Both the position numbers and the translations under genes were made by a program. A stretch of 64,000 nt of DNA from the NCBI RefSeq assembly GCF_030295915.1, contig NZ_AP027361.1, forward strand, positions 930,001 through 994,000. The letters are read 5' to 3'. Numbering within the stretch: the stretch's first letter is position 1; every line of letters starts with the position of its first letter. Shown piece by piece: positions 13,837 through 20,550 of this stretch. The notes below the pieces were generated by a model, which was given only the letters and a program-made list of their open reading frames with translations, had not been told where the DNA came from and searched no databases. The stretch comes from Thalassotalea sediminis (lineage in GTDB: Bacteria > Pseudomonadota > Gammaproteobacteria > Enterobacterales > Alteromonadaceae).

Positions 13837-14076
13837 TTACTTTTTAAAGCTAGAAGAAATATTGTTTAGCTTTTGTTTTGTTTTTTTATTTTCTGCTCTT
13901 ATTTCATTTAGCGCTTGTGTATTTTTAGTTTGCTGTTCTTTTAGTTTACTGACTTCAGTCGTGAGCCTATCAACTTTATTTGATAAGGTTGTTACTTGTT
14001 GCTCAAGATTATTTGAGTTAGAGCACCCAGTAAAAAGCAATATTGTTGTTATGCTTATACATAGTGATTTTTTCAT
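13837..14076 (-). CDS. small Lpp-like coiled-coil lipoprotein
   Basis: The 79-residue precursor has a lipoprotein signal with lipobox LFTGC (cleavage before Cys 18), giving a 62-residue mature lipoprotein. It is nearly all heptad-like coiled coil (LEQQVTTLSNKVDRLTTEVSKLKEQQ) and ends in Lys-Lys. Size, coiled coil and C-terminal lysine match Braun lipoprotein, whose terminal lysine is joined to peptidoglycan. It is the last gene of the PspA-type operon (14 nt after the K+ channel gene) and faces an L,D-transpeptidase gene. Whether it is crosslinked is inference; another outer-membrane lipoprotein with a spacer role is possible. Confidence 0.75.
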   Translation of the reverse strand: MKKSLCISITTILLFTGCSNSNNLEQQVTTLSNKVDRLTTEVSKLKEQQTKNTQALNEIRAENKKTKQKLNNISSSFKK

Positions 14077-14090
14077 AATTGTTACGTCCC

Positions 14091-14564
14091 TTAATCTTTG
14101 TTGGCGTTATTAACCATAGGTTCAATTTTATCCACTAGCAAGTCAATTTTTTTCTCTAGTTTCTTATTCATTTCTAAAATTTCAGCATTTTGTTTACGTA
14201 ATTCTCTATTTTTCACATTGGTATCTGAAAAGCCAACAAACTTATTTACAAATTGGGCGCCAACAAAACCAACCATACCAACGCCTATATAGAACATAGC
14301 TGCGACAATTACTCGTCCTTCTAATGTTGTTGGATAAAAATCGCCAAAACCGATAGTACTAGCGCTCATTTGCAGTGTCCAGAATGCATCTTTATAACTT
14401 TTAATATTACCGTCGCTCGTCGCCGCTTCAAATTGATACAAGGGAATAGAAAGTATTGCGATGATGCCATACAGTACAGCAATAGTTATTAATAATAGAT
14501 AGAACGAGTTATAATTTTTCACGCCAAACTCGTCGATAGTGTAAGCTTTTAATTTTTTGTTCAT
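14091..14564 (-). CDS. two-TM potassium channel family protein
   Basis: The 157-residue protein has two membrane helices (about 20-43 and 85-112) around a pore loop FWTLQMSASTIGFGDFYP (about 61-78). TIGFGD replaces the canonical TVGYGD selectivity filter, so K+ selectivity is likely. After the second helix comes a cytoplasmic coiled coil (about 118-150), perhaps for tetramer assembly or for contact with partners. No RCK domain is present. It follows the ribbon-helix-helix gene by 15 nt and precedes the Lpp-like gene by 14 nt. Ion channels are found with PspA/DUF350-type gene sets in other bacteria. Confidence 0.85.
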   Translation of the reverse strand: MNKKLKAYTIDEFGVKNYNSFYLLLITIAVLYGIIAILSIPLYQFEAATSDGNIKSYKDAFWTLQMSASTIGFGDFYPTTLEGRVIVAAMFYIGVGMVGFVGAQFVNKFVGFSDTNVKNRELRKQNAEILEMNKKLEKKIDLLVDKIEPMVNNANKD

Positions 14565-14579
14565 TGTAATAATTAACGA

Positions 14580-14903
14580 TTAGTTTCCTTGATCGACATG
14601 GTAAACTAAATCTTCCATTAATTTTCGTTTTATTTCTAGTTGTTGTGTTGCATCTAGACCATATTTTTCAGCTAAGGCTTGATAATCTTCACTCGAAAGG
14701 CTAACAGTTAGTCTAGGCCGTTTAGGGCGCTTATTTACTGGCAAGCCAAGGATTTCTCTAATTTTTTCTGATGGGCTTAAGCCTGACTCTAAAGCTTCAC
14801 GTCGAATATGCATTTGAAATTTTTCATCTAAATCAAATGCCACTTGCGTAGCTTTAGCTGCTTTAACTGAAGATTGCCATTTATCAGGGACTTTTCGACT
14901 CAC
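14580..14903 (-). CDS. tandem ribbon-helix-helix-like protein, candidate regulator
   Basis: This 107-residue protein starts at GTG with an AGGAAG ribosome binding site about 8 nt upstream. Two segments each have the strand-helix-helix look of ribbon-helix-helix DNA-binding proteins: ATQVAFDLDEKFQMHIRREALESGLSPSEKIREIL (about 18-52; pattern described, not aligned) and LTVSLSSEDYQALAEKYGLDATQQLEIKRKL (about 64-94). Between them is a basic linker (NKRPKRPR). I do not recognise a named family. The gene starts 3 nt after the DUF2491 gene, inside an operon whose promoter carries palindromic sites, so autoregulation is a reasonable inference. Confidence 0.6.
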   Translation of the reverse strand: MSRKVPDKWQSSVKAAKATQVAFDLDEKFQMHIRREALESGLSPSEKIREILGLPVNKRPKRPRLTVSLSSEDYQALAEKYGLDATQQLEIKRKLMEDLVYHVDQGN

Positions 14904-14906
14904 TAT

Positions 14907-15548
14907 TTAACTTCCTGGGTACATATCTACGATATCTGTGGTAGGGCGGTACAACGTTAAAAAAACCTCCGTATCGCCATCTGACCATACTTCAACTTCT
15001 ACACCTTTATCCTCATCTTGGTTTAGCAACATATAACGCTCAAATTGTTCTCCAGAGCCTTCTCCTTCATAAGGAGATAGTTTCTCTGTTCTACTATCTT
15101 TTCGGTGAAAGTAGCCAATTTGTGCAAAAATGCGCTGCAAGTAAGAACTATCACTCCATTGGTTAGTATTATCGTTATCGCTTACACGATCAAGTTGCGC
15201 CTCACCAGGTTCATCAAATAATGTAGAGAATTGATCTAAGTCGAAAAGCGTTTCAACGTCATGATGTTGAATTTTCATGGCGAATTTTAAGTAAATAACA
15301 TCGTCAACATCAAGAGAAAGGAATAACTGCTTTTCTGTATTGCCTTTTAATACCCATTCTGTTTCTGTTTGATGCTCATATTCGTAGCTATTAATGGCTG
15401 ACACTTCAAATTGTTGCCCTCGCAAAAGCTCAGGTAACGCAAAGCTATCATTTAACTGGATAATATCACCTGTTTTTAGGTCGTTGACCTGTGATATTTT
15501 TCGCGCTGTTGTTTTGTCTTTGTTAAAGATATTTTTAAATAAGCTCAT
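14907..15548 (-). CDS. DUF2491 family protein (YjfK-like)
   Basis: The likely start is the ATG at 15548 (MSLFKNIFNKDK, 213 residues). A longer frame to 15593 would run through a terminator hairpin and is rejected. The protein is acidic and soluble, with no membrane segment, and ends FLTLYRPTTDIVDMYPGS. It resembles DUF2491/YjfK, and its place after the PspA-like gene and DUF2170 matches the E. coli yjfI-yjfJ-yjfK order. Function is unknown. Confidence 0.75.
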   Translation of the reverse strand: MSLFKNIFNKDKTTARKISQVNDLKTGDIIQLNDSFALPELLRGQQFEVSAINSYEYEHQTETEWVLKGNTEKQLFLSLDVDDVIYLKFAMKIQHHDVETLFDLDQFSTLFDEPGEAQLDRVSDNDNTNQWSDSSYLQRIFAQIGYFHRKDSRTEKLSPYEGEGSGEQFERYMLLNQDEDKGVEVEVWSDGDTEVFLTLYRPTTDIVDMYPGS

Positions 15549-15564
15549 CATTAGTACCAAAAAA

Positions 15565-15591
15565 GGCCACTTGGTTGGGAGACAAGTGGCC
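15565..15591 (-). terminator. internal terminator between pspA-like and DUF2491 genes
   Basis: GGCCACTTG (15565-15573) and CAAGTGGCC (15583-15591) form a perfect 9-bp stem with a 9-nt loop, followed on the minus strand by six T. It begins 17 nt after the PspA-like stop. It probably lowers expression of the four downstream genes relative to DUF2170 and PspA. Confidence 0.85.
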
Positions 15592-15608
15592 AAAGGGTTT
15601 AAAATTGA

Positions 15609-16298
15609 CTATTTCTGTTTTGCTTTTAGGCGTTCTAGCACTGAATTCGCGCTTTTATCTTGCTCGCCTATGCCCGCAGCTTTTAATTTTGCTTCTAAGG
15701 AGTTATCAGAGTTTTCTGATTCTAATACTTCAGCTGCTTTTAATTGATCATCAAACTTTTGTTGTTTTGCCTTAATGCGCTCTAAAGAATCTTTGGCGTT
15801 CAACAGTTTTGAATTACTAGACGAAAAATTGTCAGTGATCGCCGATGTCGCTTTTTGTACACTTTCGGTTGTTTTAACCATCGATAATTGACGTTTGTGT
15901 TCTTGTACTTGGCGTTCACTTTTCTTGACTAGTTCTTTTAACCTGTTGGCATTAGTTTCGAAGCTATCAAGTGCCTGTTGCTGAGCGGCAAGTTCACTTT
16001 CTAACGCTGAGATTTTTTCTGCTACAGCAAGTGCTAATGTTTCATCACCTTTTTCTAGCGCCTGCACTGCATAGCCTTCATGTTCTGTGATTTCTCGTTT
16101 AATGCGGTCAACTTCACGGCTAGATGCCATTTGTTGTGCCATTACGCCCGTTAGGTCACGCTTTGCTTTTGTTAAATGGTTTTCTGCATCTCGTATTTCT
16201 TGTTCAAAGATTCGAGTTGCATTTGCATCTACCACAGCTTCGCCAACTTCTGTGGCACCACCACGGATAGCAGTCATAATTTTTTTGAAAATGCTCAT
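15609..16298 (-). CDS. PspA/IM30 family protein (YjfJ-like)
   Basis: The 229-residue protein is almost entirely helical coiled coil, starting MSIFKKIMTAIRGGATEVGEAVVDANATRIFEQEIRDAENHL, typical of PspA/IM30 proteins. These peripheral inner-membrane proteins polymerise and protect or remodel damaged membranes (ESCRT-III-like). The start has a good GGAG ribosome binding site. It follows DUF2170 by 24 nt, as yjfI-yjfJ in E. coli. No pspF, pspB or pspC is nearby, so control differs from the classical psp operon. Confidence 0.9.
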   Translation of the reverse strand: MSIFKKIMTAIRGGATEVGEAVVDANATRIFEQEIRDAENHLTKAKRDLTGVMAQQMASSREVDRIKREITEHEGYAVQALEKGDETLALAVAEKISALESELAAQQQALDSFETNANRLKELVKKSERQVQEHKRQLSMVKTTESVQKATSAITDNFSSSNSKLLNAKDSLERIKAKQQKFDDQLKAAEVLESENSDNSLEAKLKAAGIGEQDKSANSVLERLKAKQK

Positions 16299-16322
16299 AA
16301 TATTACTCCAGTAATAGGGTGG

Positions 16323-16736
16323 TTATAATAGAAAATCACTCATGTCATCGATAACTTCGATGGCATTGTTACTTAAAACAGCTAGTTCGTGTTCAATATC
16401 ACTAAACGGTGAACTTGTTGATAAGGCACCAAAGATCACATATTTATCGCCAACTTTAGAAAATGATGACAACGGCATTGGTATGTTCATCTCTAACATA
16501 GCTTCGTGCATGTCTGATTTAGTGTCTTGCTTTACTTCATCTTCACCCCAAAGGTAAGTAATACATAGAATCTGATCATCTGTTACAGAAACAAAGATTG
16601 GTAGCTCTTCACGTCCGATTACAGTGATCTGCAATACGTCTACTTCACCAGAAATAGGTTGGCAGTCAAATACCATACCTGTTTCAGAGTCATCCGCTAA
16701 CGCATTCAGGTGATTCGCGATATTGTGAATATTCAT
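16323..16736 (-). CDS. DUF2170 family protein (YjfI-like)
   Basis: The ATG at 16736 is chosen (MNIHNIANHLNAL, 137 residues) because an AGGA ribosome binding site lies 5-6 nt upstream; an ATG at 16748 has none. The protein is small, acidic and soluble, and matches the size of YjfI/DUF2170 proteins, which accompany PspA-like YjfJ. It contains LPIFVSVTDDQILCITYLW and ends EVIDDMSDFLL. Function is unknown; the conserved pairing with PspA suggests a partner or regulator. It heads an operon with a promoter embedded in palindromic operators. Confidence 0.78.
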   Translation of the reverse strand: MNIHNIANHLNALADDSETGMVFDCQPISGEVDVLQITVIGREELPIFVSVTDDQILCITYLWGEDEVKQDTKSDMHEAMLEMNIPMPLSSFSKVGDKYVIFGALSTSSPFSDIEHELAVLSNNAIEVIDDMSDFLL

Positions 16737-16759
16737 TTGATTCCTCATCTATTTAAGCT

Positions 16760-16775
16760 CGATAACATGTTATCG
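16760..16775. promoter_or_regulatory. 16-bp perfect palindrome CGATAACATGTTATCG in the DUF2170 leader
   Basis: The sequence reads the same on both strands. It lies 24 nt upstream of the DUF2170 start, downstream of the predicted transcription start. It differs from the nearby 13-bp operators, so it may bind another factor or fold in RNA. Confidence 0.55.
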
Positions 16776-16785
16776 AATTTATCTA

Positions 16786-16800
16786 CGACATATTATGTCG
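16786..16800. promoter_or_regulatory. palindromic operator copy 2 (CGACATATTATGTCG)
   Basis: Arms CGACATA and TATGTCG flank one central base. The 13-bp core is the exact reverse complement of the cores at 16822-16834 and 20536-20548. It covers the predicted start point of the DUF2170-pspA operon; its centre is 35 bp from copy 1. Confidence 0.75.
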
Positions 16801-16808
16801 ATGTGTTA

Positions 16809-16836
16809 AATGTAACACCGTGACATAATATGTCAA
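16809..16836 (-). promoter_or_regulatory. promoter of DUF2170-PspA operon with operator copy 1
   Basis: On the minus strand TTGACA (complement of 16831-16836) and TACATT (complement of 16809-16814) are 16 nt apart. The -35 box lies within the palindrome TGACATAATATGTCA (16821-16835), so a protein bound there should block RNA polymerase, or replace it as activator site. Confidence 0.7.
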
Positions 16837-16859
16837 GCACATTGTTGTTATTAATTTTA

Positions 16860-18572
16860 CTATTGATTATAGGCACTATTTAAACCTTGTTGTTCACGCC
16901 AAGCTTGTTGGTGAAGTTGATAAATAGTGTGGCTCCCTAAGTAGTTTATTGGTATTTTTTCTTTTTCTTGGTAAAAATCAACCGAAAACTCAAAAGCTCC
17001 TAATAGCATTGGTAATGTTAGCCAAGACTGAGGCTGTTGCAGGTGGCTCAATTGCCTAAGCCTAGTTTTTGGACTAACACCGTTTTTGGAAGCGATTGTC
17101 CACCCCCACTCACCGAAACTTGGTACATTATCGTGGTATTGTTCAACATGATTAAAACCAGCAGCTTCTATGGTTTTACCTATTGCAATAAAGGCTGTTT
17201 TTGCGTGGTAAGGGCTGGTAGATTGCACTGACATAAGCCCATCGCCTGATAAAAGCTGTTTTAGCTTGGCATAGAAACTAACTGAATAGAGCTTATTTAA
17301 ATCGGGATGATTAGGATCAGGTAAATCCACGATTATTGAGTCAAACGTGCGCGACGAAGCAAGAAAAGTTTCAATCGCTAAATAAGCATCCTGGTGTAAA
17401 AGTTGTACACGAGAATCTTGTAAGCTTCCTTTATTTAACGTTAATAACCGCTTTGATAAATTATGATCTACGCTTTCGTTGGGATATTTAAATGTATTAA
17501 CTAATTGTTCATCTAAATCAATTAATGTAACGGAAGTAGGGTTCCAAGCTAATACATCTCGAAGTGCTAAGCCATCACCGCCGCCAATAATAAGGATATG
17601 CTCTTGTCGCGCAGAGCCCGCTAATGCAGGTGTTACTAAGTAGCTATGGTAAATGTGTTCATCCGCGGAAGAAAATTGCAAACGGCCATTAAGATAGAAA
17701 TTTAATATTGATGGTTGTTCATTACCCAAACGGCGTTCAGTGAAAGTGAGTTGTTGATAACGTGTTTTTTCGGTATAAATCACTTTATCTAAGTACAACA
17801 AGTTACTCATACTATTGAGCCATTGGTTACCATGCTGATAAATAAATACCAACCCAATAAACATAATGCTATGTAATGCGATAAGTATCTTCTGCCAGCG
17901 TAAGTGGTGCCAAAACGCGAAAATAAAGATAAAGCCAGCGATCAAATTTAATCCGGCGGTAAGGGCGCTTGCTTTACTAATATCTATGGTGAGTAAAAAA
18001 ATCACCCAAATGGCTGCGCCAATTCCTGCGCCAATATAGTCAGCGCCATAAATTGTTCCAAGGTTATTGGCGAGGTGTTTTTGATGAAGTTTCTCTCTAA
18101 TTTGCGCAATAAGTGGTATTTCCATACCAATAAAGAAACCCAGTAATAATCCAAAAAAGTATGGGCTATTTAACGCTAACCAAGTAAGTTGCTTGATAAA
18201 GCCACCGCGTATAAGAACATCCGGTGGTATTTCAAAGGTATCGCTAATTACTTGTGGCAATATTTGTGTAACAGCGATCAAGCCACCAATAATTAAGATT
18301 GCAGATGAGCCAATTATTGCGACTAATAGCTCTAACCAAACAATACCATTAAATGGACACGCTATTTTTCGAGCAGCAAAAGCGCCAAGACCCATTGCTA
18401 CAATCATAAGGCCTATCATGGCATATATTGCACTTTCCATTATACCGAGCACACGCCCAGCATAATGAGAAAGTAAATATTCATAGATTAGTCCACAGCC
18501 GGCAAGTACCGCCATAGATAAAATCAGAAGAACATCATACCAAAACAGTCTTTGAAACAAGAATTTTGGCAA
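16860..18572 (-). CDS. membrane-anchored spermidine synthase-like aminopropyltransferase
   Basis: The 570-residue protein has an N-terminal membrane region with about seven hydrophobic segments (about 12-250), then a soluble spermidine synthase-like domain. There FYLNGRLQFSSADEHIYHSYL (about 297-317), IIGGGDGLALRDVL (about 336-349, nucleotide loop) and DLPDPNHPDLNKLYS (about 423-437, with the catalytic-type Asp) are clear. Family enzymes move an aminopropyl group from decarboxylated S-adenosylmethionine to a diamine, but for membrane members the substrate is unproven. The predicted start is TTG, 4 nt after the DUF350 stop, without a good ribosome binding site, so it may depend on coupling. 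No SAM decarboxylase gene is adjacent. Confidence 0.85.
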   Translation of the reverse strand: MPKFLFQRLFWYDVLLILSMAVLAGCGLIYEYLLSHYAGRVLGIMESAIYAMIGLMIVAMGLGAFAARKIACPFNGIVWLELLVAIIGSSAILIIGGLIAVTQILPQVISDTFEIPPDVLIRGGFIKQLTWLALNSPYFFGLLLGFFIGMEIPLIAQIREKLHQKHLANNLGTIYGADYIGAGIGAAIWVIFLLTIDISKASALTAGLNLIAGFIFIFAFWHHLRWQKILIALHSIMFIGLVFIYQHGNQWLNSMSNLLYLDKVIYTEKTRYQQLTFTERRLGNEQPSILNFYLNGRLQFSSADEHIYHSYLVTPALAGSARQEHILIIGGGDGLALRDVLAWNPTSVTLIDLDEQLVNTFKYPNESVDHNLSKRLLTLNKGSLQDSRVQLLHQDAYLAIETFLASSRTFDSIIVDLPDPNHPDLNKLYSVSFYAKLKQLLSGDGLMSVQSTSPYHAKTAFIAIGKTIEAAGFNHVEQYHDNVPSFGEWGWTIASKNGVSPKTRLRQLSHLQQPQSWLTLPMLLGAFEFSVDFYQEKEKIPINYLGSHTIYQLHQQAWREQQGLNSAYNQ

Positions 18573-18576
18573 AATT

Positions 18577-19479
18577 CTACGCCATTAAAGCCGTTAATAT
18601 GAGTGCAATAGAAATACTAATCGCCATTTCCACACTTGCAACGCCAATATTATGTTGCTGATCAACTTCCTCAACAAGGTTGATCCCCCAAAGTATTATG
18701 CGTTTAGCAATTGCTGTAAGTACGGCAACTAAAATCGTCATACAGATACTAAAGACAAACCAGCCTACTAAATTTTCTAGTAGGGTATCTGGGCTGTAAA
18801 CAAGAAAGTAACTTGCAGCAGTAACGGCTAACGCTGTACTGATAACTTGACCGGCGTATCTGATCGCTAATGCATCTTGACCATTAGCAAACGCTTCTTG
18901 CATGCTATCTTCTTGATTGTTTTTAGCATATTGTTTTTCTTTAATACGAGTAACAAGTACCAGCATGGCTTGAGAGACAAAAAAGCCCGCAATAATCGCG
19001 ATAAAAGTACTGATATCTAAGCCATGAACCCACAATAGTACCGCACGAATAATAATGGCGGTAGCAATAGCGCCGGCAGCATCCACGATACCTACGGTAA
19101 TATTGCGTGCTTTAATTTGTTCAGTTTTATTAATTTGGTTTAGTGCTAATCTATCGTGAATAATACGTCCGACTTTAATCAGTATTAAACCTAATAGTCC
19201 ATAAGAAAGCATTCCAATAGCTTCCATGGTGTAACTTTCAGCGTTTTCGCCTGTAATTGCACCTGTTAGTACAATGCCTAGAGCGGCGACACTACCAGCA
19301 ACACTGATGCCAAAAGCAAAATTATCTTCTTTTGACAATTCGTCTGTTGCATTAACTTGTGCTGATATACCAGATATAAATTTCATAAAGCCAAGTAATA
19401 TGATGGCAATGGATATATCGATCGCAAGGTAGATCAAAAGATCTACATTTAAGCCTATATTTTCGAGTAATGTGTTCAT
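18577..19479 (-). CDS. DUF350 family membrane protein (YjfL-like)
   Basis: The 300-residue protein contains about eight hydrophobic helices arranged as two similar halves (about 1-140 and 145-300), consistent with duplicated DUF350/UPF0719 units. Charged loops such as DELSKEDNFAFGISVAG and NGQDALAIRYAGQ occupy matching places in each half. DUF350 proteins are inner-membrane proteins of unknown function that co-occur with PspA, YjfC-like ATP-grasp and aminopropyltransferase genes. A GGAA ribosome binding site precedes the ATG. It lies 24 nt after the lipoprotein gene and 4 nt before the aminopropyltransferase gene. Confidence 0.85.
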   Translation of the reverse strand: MNTLLENIGLNVDLLIYLAIDISIAIILLGFMKFISGISAQVNATDELSKEDNFAFGISVAGSVAALGIVLTGAITGENAESYTMEAIGMLSYGLLGLILIKVGRIIHDRLALNQINKTEQIKARNITVGIVDAAGAIATAIIIRAVLLWVHGLDISTFIAIIAGFFVSQAMLVLVTRIKEKQYAKNNQEDSMQEAFANGQDALAIRYAGQVISTALAVTAASYFLVYSPDTLLENLVGWFVFSICMTILVAVLTAIAKRIILWGINLVEEVDQQHNIGVASVEMAISISIALILTALMA

Positions 19480-19503
19480 ATTATTTCCTTGCGTATTCTG
19501 CTC

Positions 19504-20490
19504 TTATTTTCCGCGACGAAAACTACGAGATGTTGTATTAGCGCTATTTCTAAAACTCGCGTTTTTACTGTAGCTAGATGATTTCTTGGCGTAACTACTT
19601 TTAGCTCTACTCGTTTTAGCGAATTTATTAGCACTTGATTGAGCACTTCTACTTTGCCCTGACAGCGCAGATGCACCGGATTTATTTTTGCTATACGGGC
19701 TGCGATAGCGCTGTCCTTTATTACTAAAAGACTTTCTTGTACGTGTTTCTAATTGTGTTTGTTTTTGAAGTTGAGACGGTGAACTATAGCGTGTACGCCC
19801 GTAATCGTGGTAATAACTGTAATTACGATTGCTGCCCCACTGGTGATAATAGCGTTTACGTTTATAATCGAAAATGTCATCCATTAGCGAGTAAACTCCG
19901 TACCAAGCCCAAAACGACATGCCGCTACTATTTGTTTGCCACTGTCCATAATTAGGGTTACCAACAAGCTGCTCACCAACACCAAAATCTTGTGCATTAT
20001 TAGCTTTTAGACTTTGTTCTTTACTCAGGGCATTTACTCTTGGTAGTTCACCACCTGACATATCTGCAAGCACATTAAGTGGATCACTTAATGCGTCAGA
20101 GTATAGGGTAGGATCTGACGCTTGGTATATATTAATGAGTTCTTCAAAAACAGCTTCATTACTTGCAAACATTTGAGGTTGATTTTTAACGGTATTTAAC
20201 CTGTCTTGCAAGGCTTTATACATAGGACTTTTTGTTGTTGAATCTTTTAAAAATTCCTCAACAACAGGGCGTAATTGTGGTTTACTCGCGATTAATTGCT
20301 CTGCATACTGTTTGATAAGGGTTGCATTTCGCACTTCGCCTGCTGATAACGCAGCGCCAAGCTGAGTTAATCGCTGTTCGGTTAGCGGCGTTTGCTGGGC
20401 AATTTTATCGATGTAGGGATCTGAACACCCCACTAAAAACAGTAAAAAAGCGATTATTAGCGATTTTGTTAACTGGTGCATTTCTGCCAT
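19504..20490 (-). CDS. lipoprotein with Tyr- and Ser/Arg/Lys-rich tail (unknown function)
   Basis: The 328-residue precursor has a lipoprotein signal with lipobox FLVGC (Cys about 22). Residues 25-165 are mixed helical. A central part SFWAWYGVYSLMDDIFDYKRKRYYHQWG (about 191-218) is aromatic, and the last 100 residues are rich in Ser, Arg, Lys, Gln and Tyr and probably disordered and strongly basic. The start follows GAGGGA at 5-6 nt. It is the first gene of the lipoprotein-DUF350-aminopropyltransferase operon. E. coli yjfM (DUF1190) occupies a similar neighbourhood, but I cannot claim homology. Confidence 0.7.
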   Translation of the reverse strand: MAEMHQLTKSLIIAFLLFLVGCSDPYIDKIAQQTPLTEQRLTQLGAALSAGEVRNATLIKQYAEQLIASKPQLRPVVEEFLKDSTTKSPMYKALQDRLNTVKNQPQMFASNEAVFEELINIYQASDPTLYSDALSDPLNVLADMSGGELPRVNALSKEQSLKANNAQDFGVGEQLVGNPNYGQWQTNSSGMSFWAWYGVYSLMDDIFDYKRKRYYHQWGSNRNYSYYHDYGRTRYSSPSQLQKQTQLETRTRKSFSNKGQRYRSPYSKNKSGASALSGQSRSAQSSANKFAKTSRAKSSYAKKSSSYSKNASFRNSANTTSRSFRRGK

Positions 20491-20521: not shown

Positions 20522-20550
20522 TTAATAACACTGTTGACATAATATGTCTA
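20522..20550 (-). promoter_or_regulatory. promoter of lipoprotein-DUF350-aminopropyltransferase operon with operator copy 3
   Basis: On the minus strand TAGACA (complement of 20545-20550) and TATTAA (complement of 20522-20527) are 17 nt apart, giving a leader of about 25 nt. The 13-bp palindrome at 20536-20548 overlaps the -35 box exactly as at 16.8 kb, and both promoters share GTGTTA before the -10. The site is also about 55 bp upstream of glnE on the other strand. Confidence 0.7.

What the first reader, a model, noticed from the sequence alone, without database searches (positions are those of the whole stretch)
13837..20490. PspA / DUF350 / membrane aminopropyltransferase / K+ channel island: possible polyamine-linked membrane-stress system
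Nine minus-strand genes form two operons: DUF2170, PspA-like, DUF2491, tandem RHH, K+ channel, Lpp-like lipoprotein; and lipoprotein, DUF350, membrane-anchored spermidine synthase-like enzyme. Part of it matches E. coli yjfI-J-K-L. It lacks the ATP-grasp yjfC gene, and adds an ion channel and a membrane-embedded aminopropyltransferase. Inference: a system that senses or repairs inner-membrane damage and modifies an amine- or peptide-linked molecule at the membrane.
Basis: partly seen in the sequence, partly recalled or inferred. Interest (0 to 1): 0.75.

Follow-up and report, generated by a model that had tools for sequence, protein, structure and literature searches.

The report
Membrane-stress regulon under RHH repressor
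The nine-gene cluster is real and its gene make-up was already described, but it carries a DNA switch site that recurs in front of other membrane-protection genes around the genome, which points to an undescribed regulator running a whole inner-membrane stress response in marine bacteria.

Summary
All nine genes are present at the stated coordinates, in two minus-strand operons. Corrections: the 'DUF2491' gene is DUF4178-like, and the cluster is a known neighbourhood (Ravi et al. 2024, 'group 2': DUF2170/CesT-Tir, PspA, DUF4178, DUF350, 7TM-spermidine synthase, lipoprotein, sometimes RHH), not a yjfI-L locus that lost yjfC.

The new part is regulatory. The palindrome GACATANTATGTC lies once before operon A and twice, 35 bp apart, before operon B. 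It occurs only six times in the 3.9-Mb genome (reversed control 0). The other three precede a second pspA operon, nhaA and a band-7 gene. In 197 family genomes, all 85 with the cluster's tandem-RHH protein carry 2-13 sites; 102 of 112 without it carry none. Sites recur before NhaA, PspA, NfeD, SPFH, HtpX and Yip1 genes across genera, and before the RHH operon in four other gammaproteobacterial families. Best reading: the RHH protein is an autoregulated repressor of an inner-membrane stress regulon parallel to PspF. Binding and repression are inferred. The inducing signal and the aminopropyltransferase's substrate are unknown; no polyamine role is shown.

The parts
20536..20548 (.). Operator A, GACATAATATGTC on +, 45 bp before the lipoprotein start codon (operon A)
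   Evidence: Exact palindrome; 6 in the whole genome, reversed control 0
19504..20490 (-). 328-aa lipoprotein, operon A
   Evidence: No Pfam/NCBIfam hit; conserved next to DUF350 in nearly all clusters; probably Ravi's 'Ctha_1186' lipoprotein (inference)
18577..19479 (-). DUF350 (YjfL family), two repeats
   Evidence: PF03994 6.5e-34, two stretches
16860..18572 (-). Membrane-anchored aminopropyltransferase-like enzyme (APT)
   Evidence: PF01564 4.3e-30, NF002956 1.2e-175 over cut-off; catalytic motifs conserved in 31 homologues
16822..16834 (.). Operator B1, GACATAATATGTC on +
   Evidence: paired operator 34-37 bp apart conserved in the family
16787..16799 (.). Operator B2, GACATATTATGTC on +
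16323..16748 (-). DUF2170 (CesT/Tir-like chaperone fold, relative of BacA/YjfI)
   Evidence: PF09938 1.6e-38; solved relative 8q8o, 2e-8
15609..16298 (-). YjfJ-type PspA (ESCRT-III-like)
   Evidence: PF04012 2.1e-38; Vipp1/PspA structures about 1e-5
14907..15548 (-).
   Evidence: PF13785 1e-4, 22.9 bits, cut-off 25; homologue in L196 passes the cut-off
14580..14903 (-). Tandem ribbon-helix-helix protein, proposed repressor; the only DNA-binding protein recognised in the cluster
   Evidence: Predicted E20-22 H27-39 H44-51 / E66-68 H71-81 H88-105; co-occurrence with operators
14091..14564 (-). Two-TM-type K+ channel with TIGFGD filter
   Evidence: PF07885 1.9e-7; Lmo2059 5e-10 and KcsA about 1e-8; variable accessory
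13837..14076 (-). Small Lpp-like coiled-coil lipoprotein, accessory
   Evidence: Sub-threshold LPP match; present in some clusters only

Best explanation
The cluster is the home of an inner-membrane stress regulon. The tandem-RHH protein binds GACATANTATGTC and represses its own operon (paired operator), the neighbouring lipoprotein-DUF350-APT operon, and distant operons: in this genome a second PspA, NhaA and a band-7 protein, in relatives also NfeD, HtpX, Yip1 and YqiJ-like proteins. When the inner membrane is damaged or loses proton-motive force, repression is relieved and the cell makes PspA/SPFH scaffolds, membrane proteases, ion-balance proteins and the APT enzyme. It runs in parallel with the PspF-controlled psp operon. 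Shown: gene order, operators, their co-occurrence with RHH, target identity and conservation. Inferred: RHH-operator binding, repression (from operator placement), stress induction (from target functions). Speculative: release of RHH through the co-encoded DUF2170-PspA pair.
For: Six exact sites in 3.9 Mb, reversed control 0; 3 at the cluster, 3 directly before a pspA operon, nhaA and a band-7 gene. 85/85 RHH+ family genomes have 2-13 sites; 102/112 RHH- have none, 12 sites in total. Three APT-less RHH+ genomes keep 3-6 sites. 32 of 45 tested RHH- genomes have DUF2170; 24 of these have no site, and the 8 with 1-2 sites had been included because they had one. Class-wide, 6 of 10 distant RHH+ genomes have exact sites, five before the DUF2170-PspA-RHH operon and one before a DUF2170 gene on another contig; two more (one genus) have near-matching pairs at that spot. 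Targets repeat across genera: PspA 13 genomes, NhaA 11, NfeD 7-9, band-7 6, HtpX, Yip1 and YqiJ-like 3 each. In the PspA promoters a -35-like hexamer sits 16 bp before a -10-like hexamer inside the site (0/300 shuffles). The pspF-pspABC locus has no site within 2 mismatches.
Against: No binding or expression data. RHH presence follows genera, so genomes are not independent and the Fisher value is inflated. The RHH model has moderate confidence (pLDDT 70.6) and no significant PDB match. Core-promoter overlap is statistically clear only for the PspA group. Two distant RHH+ genomes show no site near RHH (L191, L193). Outside the family few remote targets were found, so the wide regulon may be a family-level expansion. 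In divergent genera operon A has no operator of its own.
Confidence: 0.75

Rival explanations
1. The RHH protein is an activator of the same regulon: it binds the palindrome and recruits RNA polymerase under membrane stress.
For: Co-occurrence and target data fit equally. In NfeD, Yip1 and YqiJ-like promoters the site makes a perfect TTGACA -35, a place some activators can use.
Against: Sites about 20-60 bp before the start codon (most NhaA, band-7, HtpX genes) leave little room for an upstream activator, and in PspA promoters the -10 lies inside the site. Variable placement and a paired autoregulatory site fit repression.
Confidence: 0.12
2. The palindrome is read by another transcription factor that happens to be inherited with the RHH gene.
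For: No binding data; RHH distribution is lineage-structured.
Against: RHH is the only DNA-binding protein recognised in the cluster. In four other families the same operator stands before the operon that encodes RHH, including the smallest form SITE-DUF2170-PspA-RHH (L190). Sites persist where APT is gone and are absent or rare where DUF2170-PspA exists without RHH.
Confidence: 0.08
3. One reading: a polyamine-linked repair system in which APT modifies an amine- or peptide-linked molecule at the membrane. This can be true together with the regulon model.
For: APT catalytic motifs are conserved; a decarboxylated-SAM source exists, a eukaryotic-type AdoMet decarboxylase in this genome and SpeD in 10/22 APT+ against 1/22 APT- genomes. 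The alternative cluster carries a glutathionylspermidine-synthase-like ligase.
Against: APT is absent from sub-groups that keep RHH, operators and the dyad; the AdoMet decarboxylase is unlinked; no polyamine gene was seen among the remote targets.
Confidence: 0.25
4. Only the two cluster operons are truly co-regulated; the remote sites are chance palindromes.
For: Some sites lie near genes with no evident link (L126, L142); in some lineages only two sites exist per genome (genus g20).
Against: Reversed control 0 in this genome; the same orthologues (nhaA, pspA, band-7, nfeD) carry the site in many genera.
Confidence: 0.05

Closest known systems
Ravi et al. 2024 (PMC11237479) 'group 2' CesT/Tir-PspA operon (e.g. 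AAN56744-AAN56747)
   Same: DUF2170 + YjfJ-PspA + DUF4178 + 8TM DUF350 + 7TM-spermidine synthase + lipoprotein, sometimes a terminal RHH
   Different: The section read mentions no operator, no remote targets and no tested RHH function; here also a small K+ channel and an Lpp-like gene
E. coli psp (PspF/sigma-54) regulon
   Same: PspA-centred inner-membrane stress response
   Different: Regulator is a predicted RHH repressor with sigma-70-like promoters; PspF and its own pspABC locus coexist elsewhere without the operator
Bacillus subtilis sigma-W regulon (PMC3498285) and the YdjI-PspA link (PMC8581546)
   Same: One regulator joins the pspA, yuaF-floT and yqeZ-yqfA operons; an SPFH protein works with PspA
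   Different: ECF sigma factor instead of an RHH repressor; here NhaA, HtpX and the APT cluster are added
P. aeruginosa bac cluster (BacA = DUF2170, PMC10948618) and E. coli yjfIJKL-yjfC
   Same: DUF2170-PspA dyad
   Different: No spermidine synthase-like gene in or around bac; the yjfC-type cluster read in an RHH- relative has no RHH gene (L230)
Tandem RHH proteins: AvtR, F-plasmid relaxosome TraY, single-chain Arc
   Same: Two RHH units in one chain; among the highest TM-scores seen (0.36-0.40)
   Different: No significant sequence or Foldseek match; chromosomal stress role proposed here

Membership tests
Ravi 2024 group-2 CesT/Tir-PspA operon | DUF2170 next to PspA | tested here: met
Ravi 2024 group-2 CesT/Tir-PspA operon | Membrane-fused spermidine synthase, long DUF350, lipoprotein, DUF4178 | tested here: met
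   DUF4178 just below cut-off in the window, above it in L196; TM counts were not computed
Ravi 2024 group-3 / yjfC-type cluster | ATP-grasp GSP_synth, DUF2491, DUF1190 | tested here: not met
   None of these families hit in the window genes; all three found in RHH- relative L230
Canonical PspF-controlled psp operon | pspF next to the pspA gene | tested here: not met
   pspF lies about 1.7 Mb away beside its own pspABC
Ribbon-helix-helix regulators | Beta-alpha-alpha motif | tested here: met
   Predicted twice at moderate confidence; weak sub-threshold RHH_1 hit in homologue L189
Ribbon-helix-helix regulators | Binds a short symmetric operator | not testable with these tools
   Co-occurrence only
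Aminopropyltransferases | Spermidine synthase active-site motifs (GGGDG, DxxDP, DExxYH) | tested here: met
   Present in the query and largely invariant in 31 homologues; aligns with 7xif
Aminopropyltransferases | Aminopropyl transfer activity and substrate | not testable with these tools
   Needs an enzyme assay
K+ channels | Pore with TxGFG-type selectivity filter | tested here: met
   TIGFGD in the sequence; PF07885 and PDB matches

The most novel reading that the evidence does not exclude
A new kind of PSP control: a tandem-RHH repressor of a genome-wide inner-membrane regulon whose release is governed by its own operon's PspA-DUF2170 pair sensing damaged membrane, in parallel with PspF.
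Probability: 0.35. Interest if true: 0.78.

Novelty: new variant of a known kind. Interest (0 to 1): 0.62.

Why it matters
It turns a list of poorly characterised families (DUF2170, DUF4178, DUF350, membrane APT) into members of one proposed regulon with a regulator, an operator and known co-targets. It offers a Gram-negative counterpart of the Bacillus sigma-W logic joining PspA with SPFH/NfeD proteins, and a cheap direct test: one gene deletion with RNA-seq. It also suggests that PspA control in these bacteria runs through two parallel circuits.

Tried and rejected
DUF2491 identity: rejected. 'No decarboxylated SAM in this genome': nearly concluded from absent PF02675, overturned by PF01536. 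RHH as a replacement of PspF: rejected, PspF is over cut-off in 196/197 family genomes. RHH in PDB by sequence: nothing; Foldseek not significant. One-mismatch sites as a class: barely above control (10 against 7), so only hflKC and yccA are named, as candidates. Rfam and tRNA scans of the window: nothing. Paper searches for the operator or an RHH-PspA regulon: nothing on point. A genome-contig scan with the RHH protein gave only 12 close relatives.

Full report
Observation. The nine minus-strand genes exist at the stated places and fall in two blocks: A (lipoprotein, DUF350, APT; 20490-16860) and B (DUF2170, PspA, DUF4178-like, tandem RHH, K+ channel, Lpp-like; 16748-13837). Families were assigned with Pfam and NCBIfam. 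The one wrong name is DUF2491: the gene is DUF4178-like. Flanks are an L,D-transpeptidase and glnE. Named relatives are Thalassotalea, Colwellia and Litorilituus.

Known part. Ravi et al. 2024 (PMC11237479; [quoted passage not shown] Their third group, with ATP-grasp ligase, K+ channel, DUF2491 and DUF1190, is what an RHH-less relative carries here (L230). DUF2170 occurs in 32 of 45 RHH-less genomes tested, with a YjfJ-type PspA beside it in the ten loci checked. The window cluster is therefore a member of a described alternative, not a yjf locus with a missing gene.

Operators. Reading the promoters showed GACATATTATGTC before operon A and twice before operon B. It is exact three times in the window; every other match there has two mismatches. 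In the whole 3.9-Mb genome there are six exact sites and none for the reversed control. The three remote sites lie before (i) a small secreted coiled-coil gene followed by a second PspA that passes the PspA equivalog cut-off, (ii) nhaA, 30 bp before its start codon, and (iii) a band-7 protein, 30 bp before its start codon.

Regulator. RHH homologues occur in 85 of 197 family genomes; all 85 have 2-13 sites (mean 5.7). Of 112 without RHH, 102 have none and 10 have one or two. Sites remain where APT is lost (G001, G053, G194). Genomes with DUF2170 but no RHH have no site, or one or two; in the four whose coordinates were listed the site is on another contig from DUF2170 or megabases away. Across the class, a profile search found RHH in 12 of 321 genomes. 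Of the ten outside the family, six have exact sites against one of ten controls. In five of them (four families) these stand before the DUF2170-PspA-RHH operon; in G374 they stand before a DUF2170 gene on another contig. Two more genomes of one genus have close variants in a pair at the same place (L192, L194), as has the G374 RHH operon (L198). The pair is 34-37 bp apart in the family and 15-18, 33 or 46 bp elsewhere. Genome counts are not phylogenetically independent; the distant families are the better evidence. The predicted fold is beta-alpha-alpha twice, with Q20 and F23 of the first strand kept in all aligned homologues. Foldseek hits are not significant, though AvtR, single-chain Arc and F-relaxosome chains have among the highest TM-scores.

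Regulon. About sixty loci from 14 other genomes of the family, holding sites outside the cluster, were read. Recurrent targets, this genome included: PspA operon in 13 genomes (PspA found downstream in all 13, 62-79% identity for the other twelve), NhaA 11, NfeD 7-9, band-7 6, HtpX 3, Yip1 3, YqiJ-like 3 (YqiJ by resemblance only, no Pfam hit), and isolated cases of alpha-carbonic anhydrase, YbjQ, a YidC-type insertase and another SPFH protein. In the own genome one-mismatch sites precede hflKC and a YccA-like gene; such sites are near chance as a class.

Mode. The gap from site to start codon is about 20-60 bp for most NhaA, band-7 and HtpX genes, so the site lies at the core promoter. In the PspA group a -35-like hexamer sits 16 bp before a -10-like hexamer inside the palindrome (mean 3.29 of 6 against 2.30 in shuffles, 0/300); NhaA shows a weaker trend (p about 0.04). 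In NfeD, Yip1 and YqiJ-like promoters the site supplies TTGACA. Occlusion by a repressor explains this best. PspF is over cut-off in 196/197 genomes, and its pspABC locus lacks the site, so the two circuits are parallel.

Enzyme. APT catalytic motifs are conserved in 31 homologues and align with solved aminopropyltransferases. The genome lacks bacterial-type SpeD but has a eukaryotic-type AdoMet decarboxylase, so decarboxylated SAM is likely available. The substrate is unknown. Because APT and the channel are lost in sub-groups while DUF2170, PspA, RHH and operators stay, they look like outputs and not the core.

Mechanism. The core is the operator pair, DUF2170, PspA and RHH (L190). I propose that RHH represses until membrane damage changes the state of PspA/DUF2170, which then sequesters or releases RHH. 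The sensing step is speculation by analogy with PspA-PspF and CesT-type partner switching (own knowledge, not tested).

Noticed in passing
G000:C1:2415074-2415964 (L228:5072-6034): Eukaryotic-type AdoMet decarboxylase (PF01536, 3e-51) with an LSESSLFV motif, directly followed by a radical-SAM-like protein (L228:6115-8079). None of the 14 control genomes has the family.
   Followed up: partly
L007, L104, L111, L116, L119, L137 and other PspA-operon promoters, 20-60 bp upstream of the site: A repeated element resembling GTYAAWTTNACYA, two copies about 21-25 bp apart, seems conserved before the RHH site, suggesting a second regulator of the remote pspA operon.
   Followed up: no
L007:4233-4514 and orthologues: A 90-110-aa predicted secreted protein without any family hit, located just before the remote pspA in most genomes read.
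   Followed up: no
RHH+ against RHH- family genomes: The group-2 (RHH/APT) cluster and the yjfC-type (group-3) cluster may be mutually exclusive: at most one DUF2170 match per genome tested.
   Followed up: partly
L112, L114: Alpha-type carbonic anhydrase under the operator in two genera, an unexpected regulon member.
   Followed up: no
L202:1992: In a distant family (G248) a site overlaps the start of a TraB/PrgY/GumN gene.
   Followed up: no
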